This document shows positions 46,127 to 64,000 of a stretch of DNA of 64,000 nt, one piece after another; within the stretch, counting starts at the first letter, position 1, and every line of letters begins with the position of its first letter. The notes under the pieces were generated by a model. The model did no database searches and had not been told where the DNA came from. It was given only the letters and a program-made list of their open reading frames with translations. The stretch comes from Allacma fusca (lineage: Eukaryota > Arthropoda > Collembola > Symphypleona > Sminthuridae): assembly GCA_947179485.1 (NCBI GenBank), contig OX359245.1, positions 51,819,067-51,883,066 on the forward strand. Direction: 5' to 3'. A program made the position numbers and the translations under genes.

Positions 46127-47656
46127 GTACTGGAGAATCAAATTAGACAACCAACCGGCAGCGTTACTGGCGTTCAAGCTTACAGAGATGTATATGCTGG
46201 CATACTGGTCGTTACTATTATTCAGTCAGAAACAGCTAGTAATTTGCATAGCAATTCAAATTTGGCTACTACACCAGCATTCCAGCATACAAGACCGTAT
46301 CCCTACATTGAGGATGAGCCAACTTTTGTGGGGAGGGTCCAACTTCTAATGGACCTTGAATCCGATACAAAAAATGTCCCTTCCAGACATTTACATAGAA
46401 AAGGCTTCGTCTACTGGATAACAGGAATCGAAGGAATTGGGAAATCTAGGTTTGCCCAACAGTTCATTGAACATTTAAAGAGAAGGAAAATACGGAAAGA
46501 ATTCTTGTGGTTTGACTGCAACCACCCACAGACATTATTCGAGCAATTTACTGAAGCAGCTCAAGCAAACGGCATTCCCTTGGGACCAATAGAACAGGGA
46601 GGCATTAAGCAAATGTACAAGGAATTTAGCAATAATTATGAAATGATAATTATCTTTGACAATGTCAAGTATTATGCTGACATTGAAGAATATCTTCCTA
46701 CAAGTACTTTTGGCAAGTTTACAGTCATCGCCACATGTGGCTACTTAGATCCGGAGTTACGAAAATCCAGAGGGATGTCTCTCACATCCTTGGATAGAGC
46801 TGAGAGCAAGGAACTGTTATTGGCTGCAAATTCATCAAATACTGCACCGTTGCAGAGCACGAAATTGAACGAGGCCTGTGAAACGGCTATTCAGATTAGC
46901 AGTGGCATCCCACCCGTTTTGAAAGATTTAATTGATTTTGCATGCTCATGTGCAGAACAACAATATCCTCTCGGAAATGATGATTACAACGTGAATGCAT
47001 TTTTTGACACCTGGGCAAGAGAAAAGCATTTACTAAATTGTAACGATCTCGCTCAGGCAGAGTTAATCAATATTACCGACCGATTTACGGAAATCATGAA
47101 AGATCTTTTGACAACCATTGAGCAAAGATCTGTTGTAACATCTGAAGTTCAGCGAGGAATTGTTCAGATATTAATGTTAATGTCATTCCTGCTACCTCTG
47201 CCTAATCGTATACCCCAAGTTTTACTATCTAAGTTTCTTGACCTTGATGCGAAGATTTATCCTAAAGCTAAAAACTTGTTGAGCCAGCATTTCTTACTAA
47301 TAAATGTGTTGGATGAACCTCAGTATATACAAATTTATAGTTCAGTACAAAGTAGCTTGGCTAAGGTCTTGTGGGAAGACAAAAGAAAAGATTTTGTTGA
47401 TTTTCTGGAATCGTTTTATCCCAGAATGCAATCTTATATAGCCCAAGCTGAAGTCAAAACTAGAATCGGTCAATTAAGCATTAGTAACTGCATTCATGCT
47501 CTAAAAGAGCGGAGAGAAAAATTGAATACAGAGCCCGAGATAGATCTGGTTCAATGTTTGGTGGAAAAGGTTCAGATCATATTTCCGGAAAAGAACATTC
47601 CACTCGACAGTAGTCTCAATACTTTAGCTGAGCTCTTTGAAACCAGTGCGAGATAA
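46127..47656 (+). CDS. NB-ARC-like STAND ATPase (NLR-type), main 3' exon
   Basis: The exon opens after the acceptor TTTGCATAG and stays open for 509 codons to TAA. With exons 1 and 2 the predicted protein is 544 residues. About 60 residues into this exon comes FVGR, which often precedes the NTPase. Next is the P-loop GIEGIGKS (about residues 135-142 of the model), then Walker B IIIFDN (209-214), a sensor-like FTVIATCGY, LTSLDRAESKELL (like the L..L...EA..L motif) and SSGIPPVL at the place of the NB-ARC GLPLAL motif. A helical region follows. The last residues, SLNTLAELFETSAR, resemble the first helix of a TPR, as in the array units (LNTYKSLGQVFEKQEN). Such proteins usually act as signal-gated oligomerising ATPases in immunity or cell death. 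That role is family knowledge and is not shown here. Unlike most relatives, this copy stops at or before the repeat domain. Confidence 0.82.
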   Translation, partial: VLENQIRQPTGSVTGVQAYRDVYAGILVVTIIQSETASNLHSNSNLATTPAFQHTRPYPYIEDEPTFVGRVQLLMDLESDTKNVPSRHLHRKGFVYWITGIEGIGKSRFAQQFIEHLKRRKIRKEFLWFDCNHPQTLFEQFTEAAQANGIPLGPIEQGGIKQMYKEFSNNYEMIIIFDNVKYYADIEEYLPTSTFGKFTVIATCGYLDPELRKSRGMSLTSLDRAESKELLLAANSSNTAPLQSTKLNEACETAIQISSGIPPVLKDLIDFACSCAEQQYPLGNDDYNVNAFFDTWAREKHLLNCNDLAQAELINITDRFTEIMKDLLTTIEQRSVVTSEVQRGIVQILMLMSFLLPLPNRIPQVLLSKFLDLDAKIYPKAKNLLSQHFLLINVLDEPQYIQIYSSVQSSLAKVLWEDKRKDFVDFLESFYPRMQSYIAQAEVKTRIGQLSISNCIHALKERREKLNTEPEIDLVQCLVEKVQIIFPEKNIPLDSSLNTLAELFETSAR

Positions 47657-49457: not shown

Positions 49458-49595
49458 ACAAGGTAGATCATGGTGGTAGGCTAAAACATTACTATCAACG
49501 CTGGCAGTATATCACAAGCGACCCATACGTTTTGGAATGTATCCGAGGAGTCAAACTACCGTTCTCACGTTTACCTGTACAACAGAAGCTTCCGT

Positions 49596-51338
49596 ATGAA
49601 AGAAACCTCTTGTCACGAGAATGATCTTTTATGGGACGCTATTGTTGACCTATTATCAAAGGGAGCAATACAGGAATACGAGCATACGGTTGGGGAGTTT
49701 ATCTCTTCAGGTTTTCTTGTCCCAAAATCTCCGGGCGGAATGAGATTTATAATTAATTTATCGCTACTCAACGAGTTCATTTCGTGCTCACATTTCAAAA
49801 TGGAGGATTTTCGAACTACTCGTCGTTTAATCACTAAAAACTGCTTCATGGCCACTATAGATCTCAAGGACGCCTATCTTTTAGTCCCAGTGAATAAAGA
49901 TTATTGGAAATTTTTACGATTCCAATTTAACGGAAAATTGTACGAATTTACCTGCTTATGTTTCGGTCTCAATATAGCACCTAGAATTTTCACTAAGATT
50001 CTTCGACCGGTAGTAGGCTACCTTCGATCTTTGGGTCATGAAAGCTGTGTTTACTTAGACGACATATTTCTGCTCGGGCGTAACGAGTACAGTTGCCTTG
50101 GTAATGTGGCTCACACAAAGTCGTTCCTTGAGTATCTTGGTTTGGTTATAAACTATGATAAATCAAACCTGATCCCATCAACTAAAATATCCTATTTGGG
50201 TTTTGTCTTTGATTCCGTAAAAATGCGTATGTTCATTCCGGAGATAAAAGTCAAGAAAACTCTGGGAATGATTTCGTCGTTCCTTGCCAGCAAATCTCTC
50301 ACTATTAGGCAGCTGGCAACATTATTGGGAGTGTTTATCTCTCAAATTCCAGCTGTTTCTTACGGTCTCTTGTATACCAAGATACTCGATTTCGAAAAAT
50401 TTCGTAGCTTAAACCAACATAATGATAATTTTAATAGTAAAATTGTTTTGTCCCATCATGCTCGTCAGGATATATTGTGGTGGCAGCAATCATTACGAAT
50501 TAACTCTGGACAAAATATTTTTTGTGATGAATTCTCCTTAGAAATATTTTCTGACGCTTCCATGTCAGGATGGGGCGCATACTGTAATTCAGTCTCTTCA
50601 CACGGATTATGGAATAGCTCTGAAGCTGATTATAGTATTAATTATTTGGAGTTGTTAGCCGCCTTTTATGGTCTGCGCTGCTTTGCCCGCTCCTACCGTA
50701 ATTGTCGTATTTTATTAAGGATTGACAACACTACTGCCATTGCATATATAAACCGCTATGGGGGAGTTCAGTACCCTAGACTAAACAAACTTGCAAGGAA
50801 AATCTGGCAATTTTGTGAATTCAGGTCTTTACATGTTTTTGCTTCCTATATTCCTTCGAAGGAAAACTGCGAGCCTGATGCTGCATCTCGTAACACGGAT
50901 TGGGAAACGGAGTGGCAATTAAATCCAACTATATTTCAACAAATTTTACGAAAAATGTCTACCTCATGCCACGTAGACCTGTTTGCATCCATGCTAAACG
51001 CACAATTTGACTGTTATGTGTCATGGAAACCTGACCCTTTTGCGTGGAAGGTGGATGCATTCACGTTCTCTTGGGAGAGCATAAAGTTTTATGCCTTTCC
51101 GCCAATCTCTCTAATACCCCGAGTGCTTCAAAAGATCATAAACGATAAAGCCAAAGTGCTGCTTATCGTACCTAACTGGAGCACTCAATCGTGGTTTCCA
51201 CTATATAAAAAATTGTTAAAGGGGGATACAATCGTTATCCCACCACAATCTAATTTGTTAATTTTTGGTAACAGAGTACATCCCCTGAACGACAAACTAT
51301 CGTTACTAGCCGGGATTTCATCCGGTCAGCTCTACTAA
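49596..51338 (+). CDS. Reverse transcriptase / RNase H / methyltransferase-like region of the DIRS-like element
   Basis: A 580-codon open region. Reverse transcriptase signatures appear in order: FMATIDLKDAYLLVPV (motif A), LCFGLNIAPRIFTKIL, and YLDD in CVYLDDIFLLG (active site). RNase H follows, with LEIFSDASMSGWGAY, INYLELLAAFYGL, LLRIDNTTAIAYINR and YIPSKENCEPDAASR supplying the acidic residues. The C-terminal part, with VDLFAS, WKPDP, VDAFTFSW and YAFPPISLIPRVLQKI, is the methyltransferase-like domain typical of DIRS elements, whose function is not settled. In the family this protein copies the element's RNA. Confidence 0.93.
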   Translation: MKETSCHENDLLWDAIVDLLSKGAIQEYEHTVGEFISSGFLVPKSPGGMRFIINLSLLNEFISCSHFKMEDFRTTRRLITKNCFMATIDLKDAYLLVPVNKDYWKFLRFQFNGKLYEFTCLCFGLNIAPRIFTKILRPVVGYLRSLGHESCVYLDDIFLLGRNEYSCLGNVAHTKSFLEYLGLVINYDKSNLIPSTKISYLGFVFDSVKMRMFIPEIKVKKTLGMISSFLASKSLTIRQLATLLGVFISQIPAVSYGLLYTKILDFEKFRSLNQHNDNFNSKIVLSHHARQDILWWQQSLRINSGQNIFCDEFSLEIFSDASMSGWGAYCNSVSSHGLWNSSEADYSINYLELLAAFYGLRCFARSYRNCRILLRIDNTTAIAYINRYGGVQYPRLNKLARKIWQFCEFRSLHVFASYIPSKENCEPDAASRNTDWETEWQLNPTIFQQILRKMSTSCHVDLFASMLNAQFDCYVSWKPDPFAWKVDAFTFSWESIKFYAFPPISLIPRVLQKIINDKAKVLLIVPNWSTQSWFPLYKKLLKGDTIVIPPQSNLLIFGNRVHPLNDKLSLLAGISSGQLY

Positions 51339-51344
51339 CCAACA

Positions 51345-52288
51345 ATGTCCCCATCCAAGCCGCAGATACTATACTCCACAGTCTGGCGGATTCAACCTGG
51401 AAACAATACGAGATTTCGTTCAAATCCTGGTCAAAGTATTGTGATCTGCACAATTTCAATATTTACGATATCACAATTCACAATACTCTACAGTTTCTTC
51501 AACAACTATATAACAATGGTCAAGGATACAGCAGCTTGAATAGTGCAAGATCCTTTCTGTCATTGGTGTCGACCGGTTCAAGTGGTTAAACAGTGGGAAA
51601 CGACCCGCTTATTTCAAGATTTATGCGCGGTATTGGTAAACAACGCCCTCCGACACCTCGTTATGACTCAACTTGGGACCCCGAAGTGGTGTTGACGTAT
51701 CTAAGAACACTGGAGCCGTTGGAAGAATTATCGTTACAATTACTCTCATTTAAAACCATTGGCCTCATAGCACTGGCTACAGCTCATCGAGTTTAAACAT
51801 TTTCTTTAATCTCAACGGATGAAATCTTCATGAAACCTACAGGTATTGAAATAAATATCTCTTCAACGGTCAAAACCAGTAAGCCTGGCGTTTTGCAACC
51901 TTCCCTGTTCCTTCCTTTCTTTCCTGAATCGCAAGCAGTGTGCGTTGCCCGTACATTGGGATGGTATCTACAAAGAACAATTCCTCTTCGATCAGCGTCC
52001 TCCACTCGTCTATTTCTAAGCGTCAATCCTCCACACAATCCTGTGACCTCTCAGACCTTAAGCAGATGGCTTAAATTAATTCTGAAGCATAGTGGTGTTA
52101 ATGACTCCGTTTATTCTGCTCACAGTTTTAGACACGCATCTACATCTGCGGCAGCTCGAAGGGGCACAAGCATAGATCCAATTCGTCGTCGAGCTGGATG
52201 GTCGGAGTCCTCTTCTACGTTTGCTCGTCACTACAATAGACCTTTGTGTTCTCAAGACCAATTTGCTCGAGCAGTGTTCAATTTATAG
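51345..52288 (+). CDS. Tyrosine recombinase region of the DIRS-like element
   Basis: The end of this region reads AHSFRHASTSAAARRG, then IRRRAGWSESSSTFARHYNR, carrying the HxxR and the nucleophile Tyr in HYNR expected of DIRS recombinases. An upstream TAHR is a candidate for the first catalytic Arg. In DIRS elements this enzyme replaces the integrase and inserts a circular DNA copy without a target duplication. Part of a broken element. Confidence 0.8.
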
Positions 52289-54400: not shown

Positions 54401-55056
54401 CAGAGATGTCCAAATGAAATTGCCTTCCTTCAAGCCTTCGAAGGCAATTTTTTGAAGAAATGCATTCCTTCATCCTTCTATTGAAGGAAGCCTTCAAAAT
54501 ATTTTTGCCTTCCTTCAGCCCTATTTTACGTATTAATTTAATGGCTCCAGCCTTCAGCCTTCAAAAAAAATCAGACCTCCTTCCTATTCAGCCTTCATAA
54601 CATGAAATACCATAGCCATGCATTTAAACAACCCTTTTGCAGGTAAAGCACCTGAAAATCAGGGATAAAATTTATTCAATTGAGTTCGTTTATTAAAATC
54701 AGAAACAATGAAGTAAATCTTATCGTGCATTTGTAGTGTTTTTAGTACACTCTCATTGTTGTATTTGTAACTATATATTGTAGCTCATTGCATGCGCGAA
54801 GCCTTCTAAGCAGCAGAGGGCTACTTTACATACTTCCTTCCTTCGCCTTCAGTTTTCTGTTAATAATAGGAAGGCTTTCTTCAGCCTTCCCGAATTAATT
54901 CAGCCTTCCCGAATTAATTCAGCCTTCCCGAATTAATTCAGCCTTCCCGAATTATTTCAGCCTTCCCGCCTTCCCTTCCCAACTCTCTGAAAATTGATAC
55001 TCCGCCTTCAATGAAGCCTTCATTGAAGGCTAGCCTTCGAAGGCTGGACATGTCTG
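54401..55056. mobile_element. hAT-type MITE (inner of three nested)
   Basis: The ends CAGAGATGTCCA (54401) and CAGACATGTCCA (reverse complement, ending 55056) match at 11 of 12 bases. They are flanked by a perfect 8-bp target duplication TCTCATAC (54393-54400 and 55057-55064). The interior is made almost wholly of GCCTTC/GAAGGC motifs in both orientations, including a 19-bp minisatellite. There is no coding capacity. It is inserted in the middle element and so is the youngest of the three insertions. Confidence 0.9.
54882..54970. repeat. 19-bp minisatellite (CAGCCTTCCCGAATTAATT)
   Basis: Four full copies begin at 54882, 54901, 54920 and 54939, followed by a partial one. The first three are identical and the fourth has one change. 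It is a local expansion of the inner element's GCCTTC motif. Confidence 0.95.
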
Positions 55057-56117: not shown

Positions 56118-57308
56118 ATCCTAAGCATTTGTCCCAACACTTTAGGTCTAATTATATATGGCCGGGGTTGGATTTTTGCTAATTCCCCTGAAAGATTGCT
56201 TTTAAATTTCCCTGTTGAAACTTAAGTAACTGCAAGGAAGTTGTCAGCAATTCCAAATAAATCCCTGCTAAAAAAAGGTCAGCAGTTTTTGTAATCCCTA
56301 TTGGCAACCAAAATTTCCATCAAAACATCAAATCCCTGTCAAATAAGGTGAACGCCTTTCCAAATCCATCTTTACAAAAAAGATCACGCAAATTATTTTG
56401 ACAGGCCAAGAAAGTCAACGAATTTGAAAACTCAGTTTACAAAACATAATCCCTTCCTGTTGACATTTTCCTTGGCAGAATAGTTTTTCTCTGGGAAGAA
56501 TCTTCCCATGAAAATAAGAACCCTGTGACATGGTAAATAATTTCTGATTGGGTTTGGGTAAGTACTCAGCCAATAAATTACATGTGAAAATACATGAAAG
56601 TATTTTATATAAGTGCAATTTACTTCAACCATCGAGAAAAGCAATGCCAGAGGTTTCAATGTACAGATAATGCCAAATAACCAATAACCAGGATCAAAAT
56701 TTTAGTATTTTATTTTGATGTGGGAATAAAAAGAACTTTTAACAGCTAAGTTTATTTAAACGAATATCTACATATACGGCAAAAATGTTTAATTCCCTGT
56801 TTATAATACTGCTCTTGTGATATGGCCACAGAACTACCCCAAAAATATTTATATTCGTGTTTAAATAATTCCCGAATTGAATTTGAATTGAATTTACTGT
56901 AACCTGATTGCACTATCTATATTTACATTCAAAGGATACGAACATCTCTGACTACCTCCACAGGAAAGTTAGAATTGAACAAATTGCCGGTAAACGTTAG
57001 ATGTTAATATCACCGCATAAATTAAAAAAAACATTGCAAACTATTATTTAATTATCTGCATATATTGAAATGCTTCGAAATTTAAGGAAATGATTTTTTT
57101 TAGAATGGCTTGAACCTAACCCATTAGTCCAGTCTAAGAAAAATATGTTCTAAGTTCCTGATATAAAACTGTTAATTCAATCCCTTGATTGGGCCATTTC
57201 TCGTTTAGAATTGTATTAACTTTCATTAAATTCTGTAAGGAAGAAAAGGACATTACTTAAGGTCAGAATTTTAAAATCCACTATGTAAATGGATAAATGG
57301 TGAAACAA
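56118..57308. other. Intergenic region between the hAT nest and the isoprenoid-synthase-like gene
   Basis: AT-rich. Between about 56190 and 56345 the motif TCCCTG (with neighbours AAT/AAA) recurs several times, which could be the worn subterminal repeat of another DNA transposon, but I find no ends. Nothing else is recognised. Confidence 0.4.
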
Positions 57309-58971
57309 TTAGAAATTCCGGCCAAATGAAGCACTGGAAACATGGCTAAAATACGTTTGCAGATCTTCAACTGGTAATTGTGCCACCAGGTCGGAAATGT
57401 CATGACATTTTTCTTCTTCCCACTGGGCATACATCTTATGTAGTTCCATTTTCTCATAAACTCCCTTCACCTCTTCAATGTTCTCCGCCTTACTTGAGCC
57501 ATAGTTTTCCTTTAAATTATTAACAAAAATTTTAGTCGCACAATTAAATTCTGAGTTGAATCATATGTGTACTAGCAATGAATTAAACGTAAGGCAGGCA
57601 TACCAGCAAAATTTTGCGATCTTCCCAAGGCGCATACTCCAAAGCCATTGCCAACTGCCAGGTGCACATTCCGTTTACAATGTTCTGCTCAAATTTTTCA
57701 GGGTGGTAAGTTGTTCCGACCAAATCTGTTTTTGCACTGTGGACAATACCAACGAGGTTTGTAATCGCCTTCACATTTTGTAGAAGCCTAGGATCCTTGT
57801 AACCAGTCTAAAAATAAAAATATCCAATAAATGTTCACACGGGCTGACATTTGTTTTCCATTCAATTACATCTGAAAATTTGAAGTTATTACCATTAGCA
57901 TACTAGATATCACGGGTTGGTAAAAGAATCCCTGAAGCATCATTGATTTTACGCGTGTGTAAAAATCTAGTTTGTACCTTAAAAACGAAAAAAAGTATTA
58001 ATTAAATCAAATGTAAATTTCAAAATTCATAATACAAGTGTATTCTTGCCTTAACTGGTTTGAAAACCTTTCATGAGACCAGTTGATTTATGAAGAAAAA
58101 AAATATTTAAAGTCATACACATAGTGTACACTTCATAAAATTAATTATTACAGAGAGAGAGAGAGAGATTCAGAGAATGATTACAGATGGAATTGTCTTT
58201 CTTTAGTATTTTTCAAAACCAGGCTTTTCCCATAAAGCTGAGAGTGAGTGTTGAAGTTCCGTAATGTAATCATATCACTGTAGTAGCTCTTCGTTTTAAA
58301 ATATTTCTGAGAAAGCAACGCCGTGGAACTTCGGACTAAAATCCCATCACAGACTGCAGCCACTTCGTGTTTATTTCTGCTGTGCCAGGTGTCCTTCCCA
58401 TTTCTTACCTTCGTGTCGTCTATTACGTCCTCCAATATTTCATGTCCTCGTAATCCCTACACGAAGTAAATACCCTATACACATTTAAAGACCTTTCTCT
58501 TGGATATATCTTCCTTAAAAAAAATTTAACTTATACAAATTATTGGGAACCCGTACCAACTCAATGGCCCAGCCATTTACAATTGCCAAATCAAAATCCG
58601 CTTGGTCCTGTGACAAATACTTGTAAGCAAGTATGGTCTGATGTGCTCTAGAATAAATTTCAGATTTGTAAAATATATTTTGAAGAATGCTAAAAATTAG
58701 CATATAGAGTGTAATCTACAAATATTTTTTATTCTCACGCAATGAAATCCCCATGTGTCACAATTGCTTGAATTGTTTCATTTAGCCATTCAGTTATGTC
58801 TGGCATACTCTCCACTCCAGGGAGGCTCCCAATGTCTTCCAAAATTTGGGGTAGATAAGATTGGAACCTGAAGGATTCAGCATCAGTCAAAAGCTTCACA
58901 GGCTGGGTAATATTTTCTAATAGTCCATTGAAATTGTAAACACCAGAAAAATTTAGTCCAGATTGAGACAT
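57309..58971 (-). CDS. Isoprenyl-diphosphate-synthase-fold protein with degenerate catalytic motifs (complete, six exons)
   Basis: Exons on the minus strand are 58971-58739, 58647-58557, 58456-58185, 57977-57893, 57807-57604 and 57509-57309. All introns are GT-AG and all phases agree, giving 361 residues, about the length of farnesyl diphosphate synthase (FPPS). The fold match is clear across the length: HQTILAYKYL, NGWAIEL, EDVIDDTKVRNGKDTW (for DDIMDSSLTRRGQPCW), GFFYQP, GMCTWQLAMAL (for NKCSW...) and KILLENYGSS at the classic ENYG block. The key residues are changed, however. GGKxxR becomes HGDFIA (73-78), the first Asp-rich motif becomes EDVID (117-121), RRG becomes RNG, the second Asp-rich motif becomes SAKTD (251-255), and the following D..DNK becomes N..NGM. 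A standard FPPS activity is therefore unlikely. It could be an insect-style terpene synthase derived from FPPS, or a pseudoenzyme. Exon 2 might instead end six bases further on, adding VR. No targeting peptide is evident. Confidence 0.85.
58152..58168. repeat. (GA)n microsatellite in intron 3
   Basis: A short AG/GA run lies about 17 bases beyond the exon 3 donor. On the transcript strand it is a CT-rich tract. Confidence 0.85.
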
Positions 58972-59549
58972 TTTCGTTAAATGTTAAAATTTTTGCTAGC
59001 TTTACAAATCAAGAGGGTCACATATAGTTTATACATTACTAAAGATTTTAAATTTAATATTTATTTATTTTGTTTTAAACTTTTTATTAAAGCTACTGTT
59101 CAATGGATCTACACTAGAGAAAGTTCCTTGTATTATAACACAGACCTTGTCTTGAAGCAAAATCGATTTGTTCCATGACTGTTGACGCTGCTCTAGAGTT
59201 CCTCAGAATTTTTGACTGTAGTCTCAAAAGGTGCTTAAAACCTTGTAACATTTTTAAACGCAAGTTTCTATCTGCACGCCAACAGCACAACTGATTTTAA
59301 TTACAAAATGTTTTTTTCGTCACCATAAAAACATTTTATTTTTCCAGAATTTCCCCCAGTTTTCCGAACATTAGAGGGCATTCATTTGTAAAAATAAGAA
59401 ATGTGACAAAAACAAGGATTAGTGGCACCAGGAAAATTTTCCTTGAGCTTCGGCACTCATGAAAAAAAAGTTAGAATCAGTTTTATTGTGTCATTACTAC
59501 TGACTGCCTTTTTGTTGTATACTGCCAGCCAACAGTCATCAGGGTGAAC
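58972..59549. other. Upstream region of the isoprenoid-synthase-like gene
   Basis: This presumably contains its promoter, but I see no clear TATA box or initiator. AT-rich; the short open frames have no resemblance to known proteins. Confidence 0.35.
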
Positions 59550-63414: not shown

Positions 63415-64000
63415 TTAACCAAATAATTTGATGATTATAATATATCTTAAGAGAAAAAAAATCATACTGCCATTAAATTTTGTTTCAGATTCTGAATCAG
63501 ATCGTCGACCAAACATTGCACTGGTAACGTGACGGAAATATTTTTGCAGAGCTTTAACGGGCAGTTGTGCAACTAGTTTGGAAATTTCCTGTGTTTTTTC
63601 TTTTTCCCACACGGGATACAGCTTATGTAGCTCCATTTTTTCATAAACTGTCTTCACTTTATCCGTAACTTCGGGTCCTTTTGAGCCATAGTTGGCCTTC
63701 AAAAGATATAGGAAAAATTTTTGTTTATACATTTTCATGTAATTACTTAAAATTATGCCGGAAATCAACCAATAATGATTTCTTAAACTCTAAGCGGAAT
63801 TAATTCCTAATCCGAGCATATTCTATTTCGAAATATTTGGTTAGCGCTGTGTCGTGAAATTTCTTACACCATTGGAATTGTGTTATAGAAATTCAATTTA
63901 AGAATTTAAAAAAGAAACATTACCAGCAAAATTTTGCGGTCTTCTCTCGGCGCATGTTCCAATGCCATTGCAAATTGCCAGGTACACATCCCCTTTGCAA
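63415..64000 (-). CDS. Second isoprenyl-diphosphate-synthase-fold gene, 3' part (continues beyond the window)
   Basis: Two exons are visible: 63924 to the window end, and the terminal exon 63696-63415, joined by a GT-AG intron at the same place as in the 57309 gene. The first reads AKGMCTWQFAMALEHAP and ends KILL. The second starts ANYGSKGPEVTDKVK and continues EKMELHKLYPVWEKEKTQEI and LVAQLPVKALQKYF. Both align closely with the neighbour (GMCTWQLAMALEYAP; ENYGSSKAENIEEVK; EKMELHKMYAQWEEEK). It too has G-M where canonical synthases have N-K before CSW. Its C-terminus is about 27 residues longer and ends in a hydrophobic run, MIFFLLRYIIIIKLFG, absent from the neighbour. This may be a tail anchor or read-through of former untranslated sequence. 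It is a tandem duplicate in the same orientation, 4.4 kb upstream of the first gene. Confidence 0.8.

What the first reader, a model, noticed from the sequence alone, without database searches (positions are those of the whole stretch)
57309..58971. Complete FPPS-fold gene that has lost nearly every canonical catalytic residue
All six exons are open with coherent splice phases, yet GGKxxR, the first Asp-rich motif (EDVID), RRG, the second Asp-rich motif (SAKTD) and the D..DNK block are altered together. FPPS-derived terpene synthases of insects show changes in these motifs, but usually milder ones. This may be a new terpene-synthase-like enzyme or a non-catalytic binding protein.
Basis: partly seen in the sequence, partly recalled or inferred. 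Interest (0 to 1): 0.75.

Follow-up and report, generated by a model that had tools for sequence, protein, structure and literature searches.

The report
Degenerate farnesyl-diphosphate-synthase-like gene, tandem pair
An intact gene related to the enzyme that makes farnesyl diphosphate has lost most of the residues needed for that reaction, and a neighbouring copy suggests it is still kept by selection, so it is more likely a repurposed protein than a dead gene; comparable genes are known from cockroaches and termites.

Summary
Minus-strand 58971-57309 splices into a clean six-exon, 361-aa FPPS homologue (Pfam polyprenyl_synt 5e-19). Against canonical FPPSs it keeps 5 of 22 substrate/metal positions (human D104, D107, R112, D244, K257), plus one conservative change (D103E). 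All five IPP contacts examined are gone. No reading frame searched hides a canonical motif or a missed exon. It too lacks the DNK block. Over 87 shared codons the pair are 70% identical with dN/dS 0.20 (95% 0.07-0.38), so a long-dead pseudogene is unlikely. Ordinary prenyltransferase activity is very unlikely. Non-catalytic (favoured, 0.50) or terpene synthase (0.33) stays open: the termite FPPS-like protein EneoA, with both Asp-rich motifs disrupted, showed no activity, but termite terpene synthases of the GGPPS-like family are reported to conserve little beyond the first motif. The pan-Blattodean FPPS-like genes are the closest precedent. Species, expression, structure and the rest of the cluster could not be checked; the structure model was unusable (pLDDT 34).

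The parts
58739..58971 (-). G1 exon 1 (residues 1-77 and 2 nt of codon 78); most of the GGKxxR equivalent HGDFIA
58557..58647 (-). G1 exon 2 (rest of codon 78 to residue 108, GWAIEL region)
58185..58456 (-). G1 exon 3; Q96 equivalent L110, first Asp-rich motif equivalent EDVID, and RNG
58418..58432 (-). FARM equivalent E117-D118-V-I-D121
57893..57977 (-). G1 exon 4; KYKT equivalent SMML (K200M alignment-dependent, T201L)
57604..57807 (-). G1 exon 5; SARM equivalent and DxxDNK equivalent
57724..57738 (-). SAKTD; T254-D255 align with D243-D244
57309..57509 (-). G1 exon 6 with stop
63924..64000 (-). G2 (tandem paralogue), last 25 full codons of exon 5, cut by window end; AKGMCTW in place of DNKCSW
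63415..63696 (-). G2 last exon with stop (longer C-terminal tail after FGRR)

Best explanation
The gene is an FPPS paralogue in a tandem pair or cluster that has lost prenyltransferase chemistry and is retained as a non-catalytic isoprenoid-synthase-fold protein. Shown: intact six-exon gene; homology over nearly the whole FPPS domain; every IPP contact examined replaced; metal and diphosphate positions mostly replaced; a sister copy sharing the loss of the DNK lysine; purifying selection across the shared C-terminal 87 codons. Inferred: it still folds as an all-helical FPPS-type dimer, and it acts by binding an isoprenoid or by pairing with a canonical FPPS or its sister copy (as regulatory isoprenyl-synthase subunits do) instead of by making a product.
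For: 5 of 22 substrate/metal positions kept, 0 of 5 IPP contacts; stable across four alignment modes except K200 and the gap at D247; no alternative exon or frame found that restores motifs. dN/dS 0.197, 95% 0.07-0.38, >=0.5 in 9 of 5000 bootstraps; 61 of 87 residues identical. Neutral simulation: 0 of 1000 copies stay stop-free at 0.2 substitutions per site. Precedents: the FPPS-like clade suggested for all Blattodea, FARM and SARM disrupted, whose tested member EneoA had no IDS or TPS activity; decaprenyl-diphosphate synthase subunit 2, described as regulatory, whose mealybug homologue lacks Asp-rich motifs.
Against: Loss of ligand residues is not significantly greater than loss of other FPPS-invariant residues (5 of 21 kept against 23 of 51, Fisher p=0.12), so selective loss of catalysis with a preserved core is not demonstrated. 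D104, D107, R112 and K257 remain and could still hold some metal-diphosphate. In termites, GGPPS-like proteins, several of them active terpene synthases, conserve only FARM and one other motif. Selection was measured only at the C-terminus, between two copies, with dS near 1. The single-sequence structure model failed (pLDDT 34), so fold and dimerisation are inferred. No expression data and no identified partner.
Confidence: 0.5

Rival explanations
1. IDS-derived terpene synthase: the IPP site was dismantled because only one allylic diphosphate is ionised; E117/D118/D121 with R126 and K265 hold a reduced metal-diphosphate site.
For: Total loss of the IPP contacts examined resembles the reported signature of insect terpene synthases: LlTPS keeps 3 of 15 and PsTPS1 4 of 15 IPP-interacting residues. 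FARM is only conservatively changed. [quoted passage not shown] Tandem duplication was a major driver of the FPPS-like family in stink bugs, where terpene synthases are known.
Against: LlTPS2 keeps conserved FARM and SARM; the seven mealybug FPPS-like proteins keep a canonical FARM. Here even FARM is altered (D103E), and the first SARM Asp, K266 and (in three of four alignments) K200 are gone. In mealybug transIDS5, D-to-N changes in SARM and at the first FARM Asp abolished irregular activity, and the FARM change diminished regular activity. No NSE motif matched in the region. EneoA, the tested FPPS-like protein with both motifs disrupted, was inactive.
Confidence: 0.33
2. Recently disabled or decaying FPPS copy (pseudogene) that happens to be still open.
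For: Very long branch, 2.3 substitutions per site; many non-catalytic invariants also lost, 28 of 51; 22-28% identity to seven reference FPPS-type sequences.
Against: No stop or frameshift in 361 codons and five intact introns; pair dN/dS 0.20; at 0.1 neutral substitutions per site only 13 of 1000 copies stay open, at 0.2 none.
Confidence: 0.09
3. A prenyltransferase of unusual chemistry (irregular or other coupling) using a rebuilt site.
For: Irregular coupling activity exists in a mealybug IDS; most pocket positions are substituted, not deleted.
Against: The mealybug irregular enzyme transIDS5 has canonical FARM and SARM, and Asp mutants lost irregular activity; the second substrate site here has no basic residue left at K57, R60 or R113.
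Confidence: 0.05

Closest known systems
Pan-Blattodean FPPS-like clade (EneoA of Embiratermes neotenicus; PMC13143122)
   Same: FPPS-derived, tandem duplication suggested, FARM and SARM disrupted, retained as genes
FPPS-derived terpene synthases of insects (LlTPS/LlTPS1, LlTPS2, PsTPS1; PMC10962984, PMC12376265)
   Same: FPPS-related with loss of IPP-binding residues
   Different: LlTPS2 is reported with conserved FARM and SARM and lost 9 of 15 IPP residues; this gene also loses the first SARM Asp and the DNK block
Termite GGPPS-like terpene synthases (PMC13143122)
   Same: Duplicated IDS family, motifs other than FARM and IGM 3 not conserved
   Different: Derived from GGPPS, not FPPS; FARM conserved there, altered here
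Mealybug FPPS-like transIDS8-13 and 18 (Planococcus citri, PMC10960109)
   Same: FPPS-like paralogues with altered SARM
   Different: All seven keep a canonical DDxxD FARM
Canonical FPPS (chicken 1fps, human 4p0v, 8a6u, 6b02; species of the last two recalled)
   Same: Collinear domain; shared G56, W90, E93, D104, D107, R112, G114, W118, K257, C267, W269, Y290-G291
   Different: 22-28% identity; 17 of 22 substrate/metal positions changed
Decaprenyl diphosphate synthase subunit 2
   Same: IDS homologue without Asp-rich motifs, described as regulatory
   Different: The PDB search returned FPPS-type chains only

Membership tests
FPPS sequence family (homology) | Polyprenyl synthetase domain with best matches among FPPS | tested here: met
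   PF00348 5e-19 over 61-316; 51 of 51 PDB matches FPPS/IDS-type, one of them bifunctional FPPS/GGPPS
Functional FPPS | FARM DDxxD and SARM DDxxD | tested here: not met
   EDVID; T254-D255 with D247 lost
Functional FPPS | IPP-binding K57, R60, Q96, R113, F239 | tested here: not met
   D, A, L, N, H; residue roles recalled from human FPPS structures
Insect IDS-type terpene synthase | Substitutions in IPP-binding motifs | tested here: met
   0 of 5 contacts kept; the published 15-residue list was not available to me
Insect IDS-type terpene synthase | Retained metal-binding motifs (FARM at least) | tested here: inconclusive
   FARM conservatively changed, first SARM Asp lost
Insect IDS-type terpene synthase | Terpene product from prenyl diphosphate | not testable with these tools
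   Needs expression and GC-MS
Blattodean FPPS-like clade | Phylogenetic placement in that clade | not testable with these tools
Blattodean FPPS-like clade | FARM and SARM both disrupted, tandem with an FPPS-type gene | tested here: inconclusive
   Both altered, FARM mildly; the neighbour is another FPPS-like copy whose FARM and SARM lie outside the window
Pseudogene | Disabling changes and dN/dS near 1 | tested here: not met
   Open frame; dN/dS 0.20 over 87 codons

The most novel reading that the evidence does not exclude
A working terpene synthase (or prenyl-diphosphate lyase) of FPPS descent in which both Asp-rich motifs are altered: it ionises its substrate with a reduced EDxxD-centred metal site, without a second Asp-rich motif, an NSE motif or most diphosphate-binding lysines, within a locally duplicated family.
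Probability: 0.28. Interest if true: 0.65.

Novelty: new member of a known kind. Interest (0 to 1): 0.4.

Why it matters
FPPS is normally an essential, tightly constrained enzyme. A selected copy with nearly all of its chemistry replaced shows how far the fold can be repurposed, and with the blattodean FPPS-like genes it suggests that catalytically altered FPPS paralogues recur. It gives a concrete test of whether such copies regulate isoprenoid synthesis or make terpenes with a reduced metal site.

Tried and rejected
Missed exon or wrong frame restoring the motifs: pattern scan and profile search of three minus-strand frames gave nothing beyond the six exons. Selective catalytic loss: the excess over general loss of invariants is not significant. 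Phylogenetic placement: forcing the gene to group with 8wd5, 8a6u and 6b02 is not rejected (AU p=0.21); the other two constraints returned the unconstrained topology, so only two topologies were really compared. Arthropod origin is neither shown nor excluded. Relatives: genome contigs and viral contigs gave no useful homologue; the only locus was a Thermotoga IDS (L001). Structure: single-sequence AlphaFold2 gave pLDDT 34, pTM 0.27, not used; I found no admissible sequences for a deeper alignment, so the second job and any fold search were not made. Species: no whole genome is held for the window. 8wd5, the best structure match, has itself an altered FARM (NDIME); its organism was not shown and the one text search for it found no paper.

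Full report
What is there. On the minus strand, 58971 to 57309 holds a six-exon gene (G1) with five GT-AG introns and coherent phases, coding 361 residues. Pfam recognises a polyprenyl synthetase domain (5.1e-19). All 51 distinct PDB sequences matched at E up to 0.1 are FPPS-type or isoprenyl diphosphate synthases, one of them a bifunctional FPPS/GGPPS; the best is 8wd5 at 7.5e-33, over residues 30-333. A profile of seven FPPS-type sequences matches residues 40-329. It is therefore FPPS-type; no chain named decaprenyl synthase, and none named GGPPS alone, is in that list.

Active site. Human numbering and the roles of residues are recalled from FPPS structural work; the alignment is computed. 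Kept: D104, D107, R112, D244, K257 (5 of 22). Changed: K57D, R60A, Q96L, D103E, R113N, T167Q, Q171K, D174V, K200M, T201L, F239H, Q240S, D243T, D247G, D261N, D264N, K266M. Four MAFFT modes agree on these except K200, which one mode keeps by opening gaps of 7 and 10 residues, and D247, which that mode sets against a gap. The IPP site is gone (0 of 5 contacts examined) while part of the allylic-diphosphate and first-metal site persists. Among 72 columns invariant in six canonical FPPSs (8wd5 left out because its own FARM is altered), G1 keeps 5 of 21 ligand or metal columns and 23 of 51 others (Fisher p=0.12): the whole protein has diverged, and a specific excess at the active site is not proven.

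Is it a gene-model error or a dead gene? None of seven motif patterns, and no further FPPS-like exon, was found in the minus-strand frames of 57240-59100. The window end holds the last part of a second copy, G2 (63924-64000, cut by the window end, and 63415-63696). G2 also replaces the DNK block (AKGM). Over 87 aligned codons 61 residues are identical; differences by codon position are 18, 11, 36; dN/dS is 0.197 with bootstrap 95% 0.07-0.38 and at least 0.5 in 9 of 5000 replicates. If one lineage had been neutral since the split, the pair value should be about 0.5 or more (inference). Copies of the G1 coding sequence mutated neutrally stay stop-free in 106, 13 and 0 of 1000 runs at 0.05, 0.1 and 0.2 substitutions per site. 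A long-dead pseudogene is thus unlikely. Limits: C-terminal part only, two sequences, dS about 1.

What it does. Ordinary FPPS activity is very unlikely, since both the IPP site and the three-metal site are broken by established criteria. Two readings remain. Insect terpene synthases derived from IDSs lose IPP-binding residues: LlTPS keeps 3 of 15, PsTPS1 4 of 15 (PMC10962984, passages), and LlTPS2 lost 9 of 15 with conserved FARM and SARM (PMC12376265, passages). G1 shares the first feature but not a conserved SARM. [quoted passage not shown] On the other side, an FPPS duplication is suggested for all Blattodea; in its divergent FPPS-like clade FARM and SARM are disrupted, and the tested EneoA had neither IDS nor TPS activity (PMC13143122, section 2.2 read in full, other passages). 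Seven mealybug FPPS-like proteins keep FARM with altered SARM, and a mealybug homologue of the regulatory DPPS subunit 2 lacks both motifs (PMC10960109, passages). I favour a non-catalytic, probably dimeric binding or regulatory protein (0.50), with a terpene synthase second (0.33). Fold, dimerisation and partner are inferred; the structure model failed.

Relation to the known. It is a new member of a known kind: an FPPS-derived paralogue with degenerate catalytic motifs. Whether it belongs to the blattodean clade cannot be tested here; a small tree gives G1 a branch of 2.3 substitutions per site and does not fix its position. Searches of prokaryote and viral contigs gave no useful relatives. 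The text searches listed no paper that, from its listing or the passages read, describes this gene; the Rebholz 2023 criteria paper was not found in the library. Springtails, which I considered as a possible host group only from the neighbouring NTPase/TPR genes, have rich cuticular terpenes (PMC11321324, passages), but nothing here identifies the species.

Neighbourhood. The first 41 kb or so is a 2,082-bp tandem repeat carrying a TPR fragment; then come a 509-aa NTPase-like open frame and a retroelement with reverse transcriptase and tyrosine recombinase. None is linked to G1 by evidence.

Noticed in passing
1-about 41600 (+): Tandem array, cut by the window start, with 20 anchors of a 2082-bp unit (two spacings of 2070 bp); the 19 full units compared are 98.9-100% identical. 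Each carries a TPR fragment (Pfam TPR_12 1.8e-9 for the first) that ends in the same stop, with TPR-like sequence going on in another frame by eye, so it looks like a satellite built on a broken TPR gene piece.
   Followed up: partly
46127-47656 (+): 509-aa open frame with a P-loop NTPase region (AAA_14 and NPHP3_N below Pfam cut-offs; NCBIfam FxSxx_TPR 3e-9, below its cut-off), NB-ARC/NACHT-like, near the TPR satellite.
   Followed up: partly
49485-52288 (+): Retroelement with reverse transcriptase (RVT_1 6.6e-20) followed by a tyrosine recombinase (Phage_integrase 9e-9); DIRS-like by that combination (label recalled).
   Followed up: partly
63415-63500 (-): G2 reads on past the position of the G1 stop into a C-terminal tail ending in a hydrophobic run (MIFFLLRYIIIIKLF), possibly a membrane anchor or just an untested 3' end.
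   Followed up: no
54880-54968: 4.7 copies of a 19-bp tandem repeat, 98% matches.
   Followed up: no
PDB 8wd5 (not in the window): The best solved-structure match, named FPPS, itself has FARM NDIME and altered Q96, T167, Q171 and D174 while keeping the SARM.
   Followed up: partly
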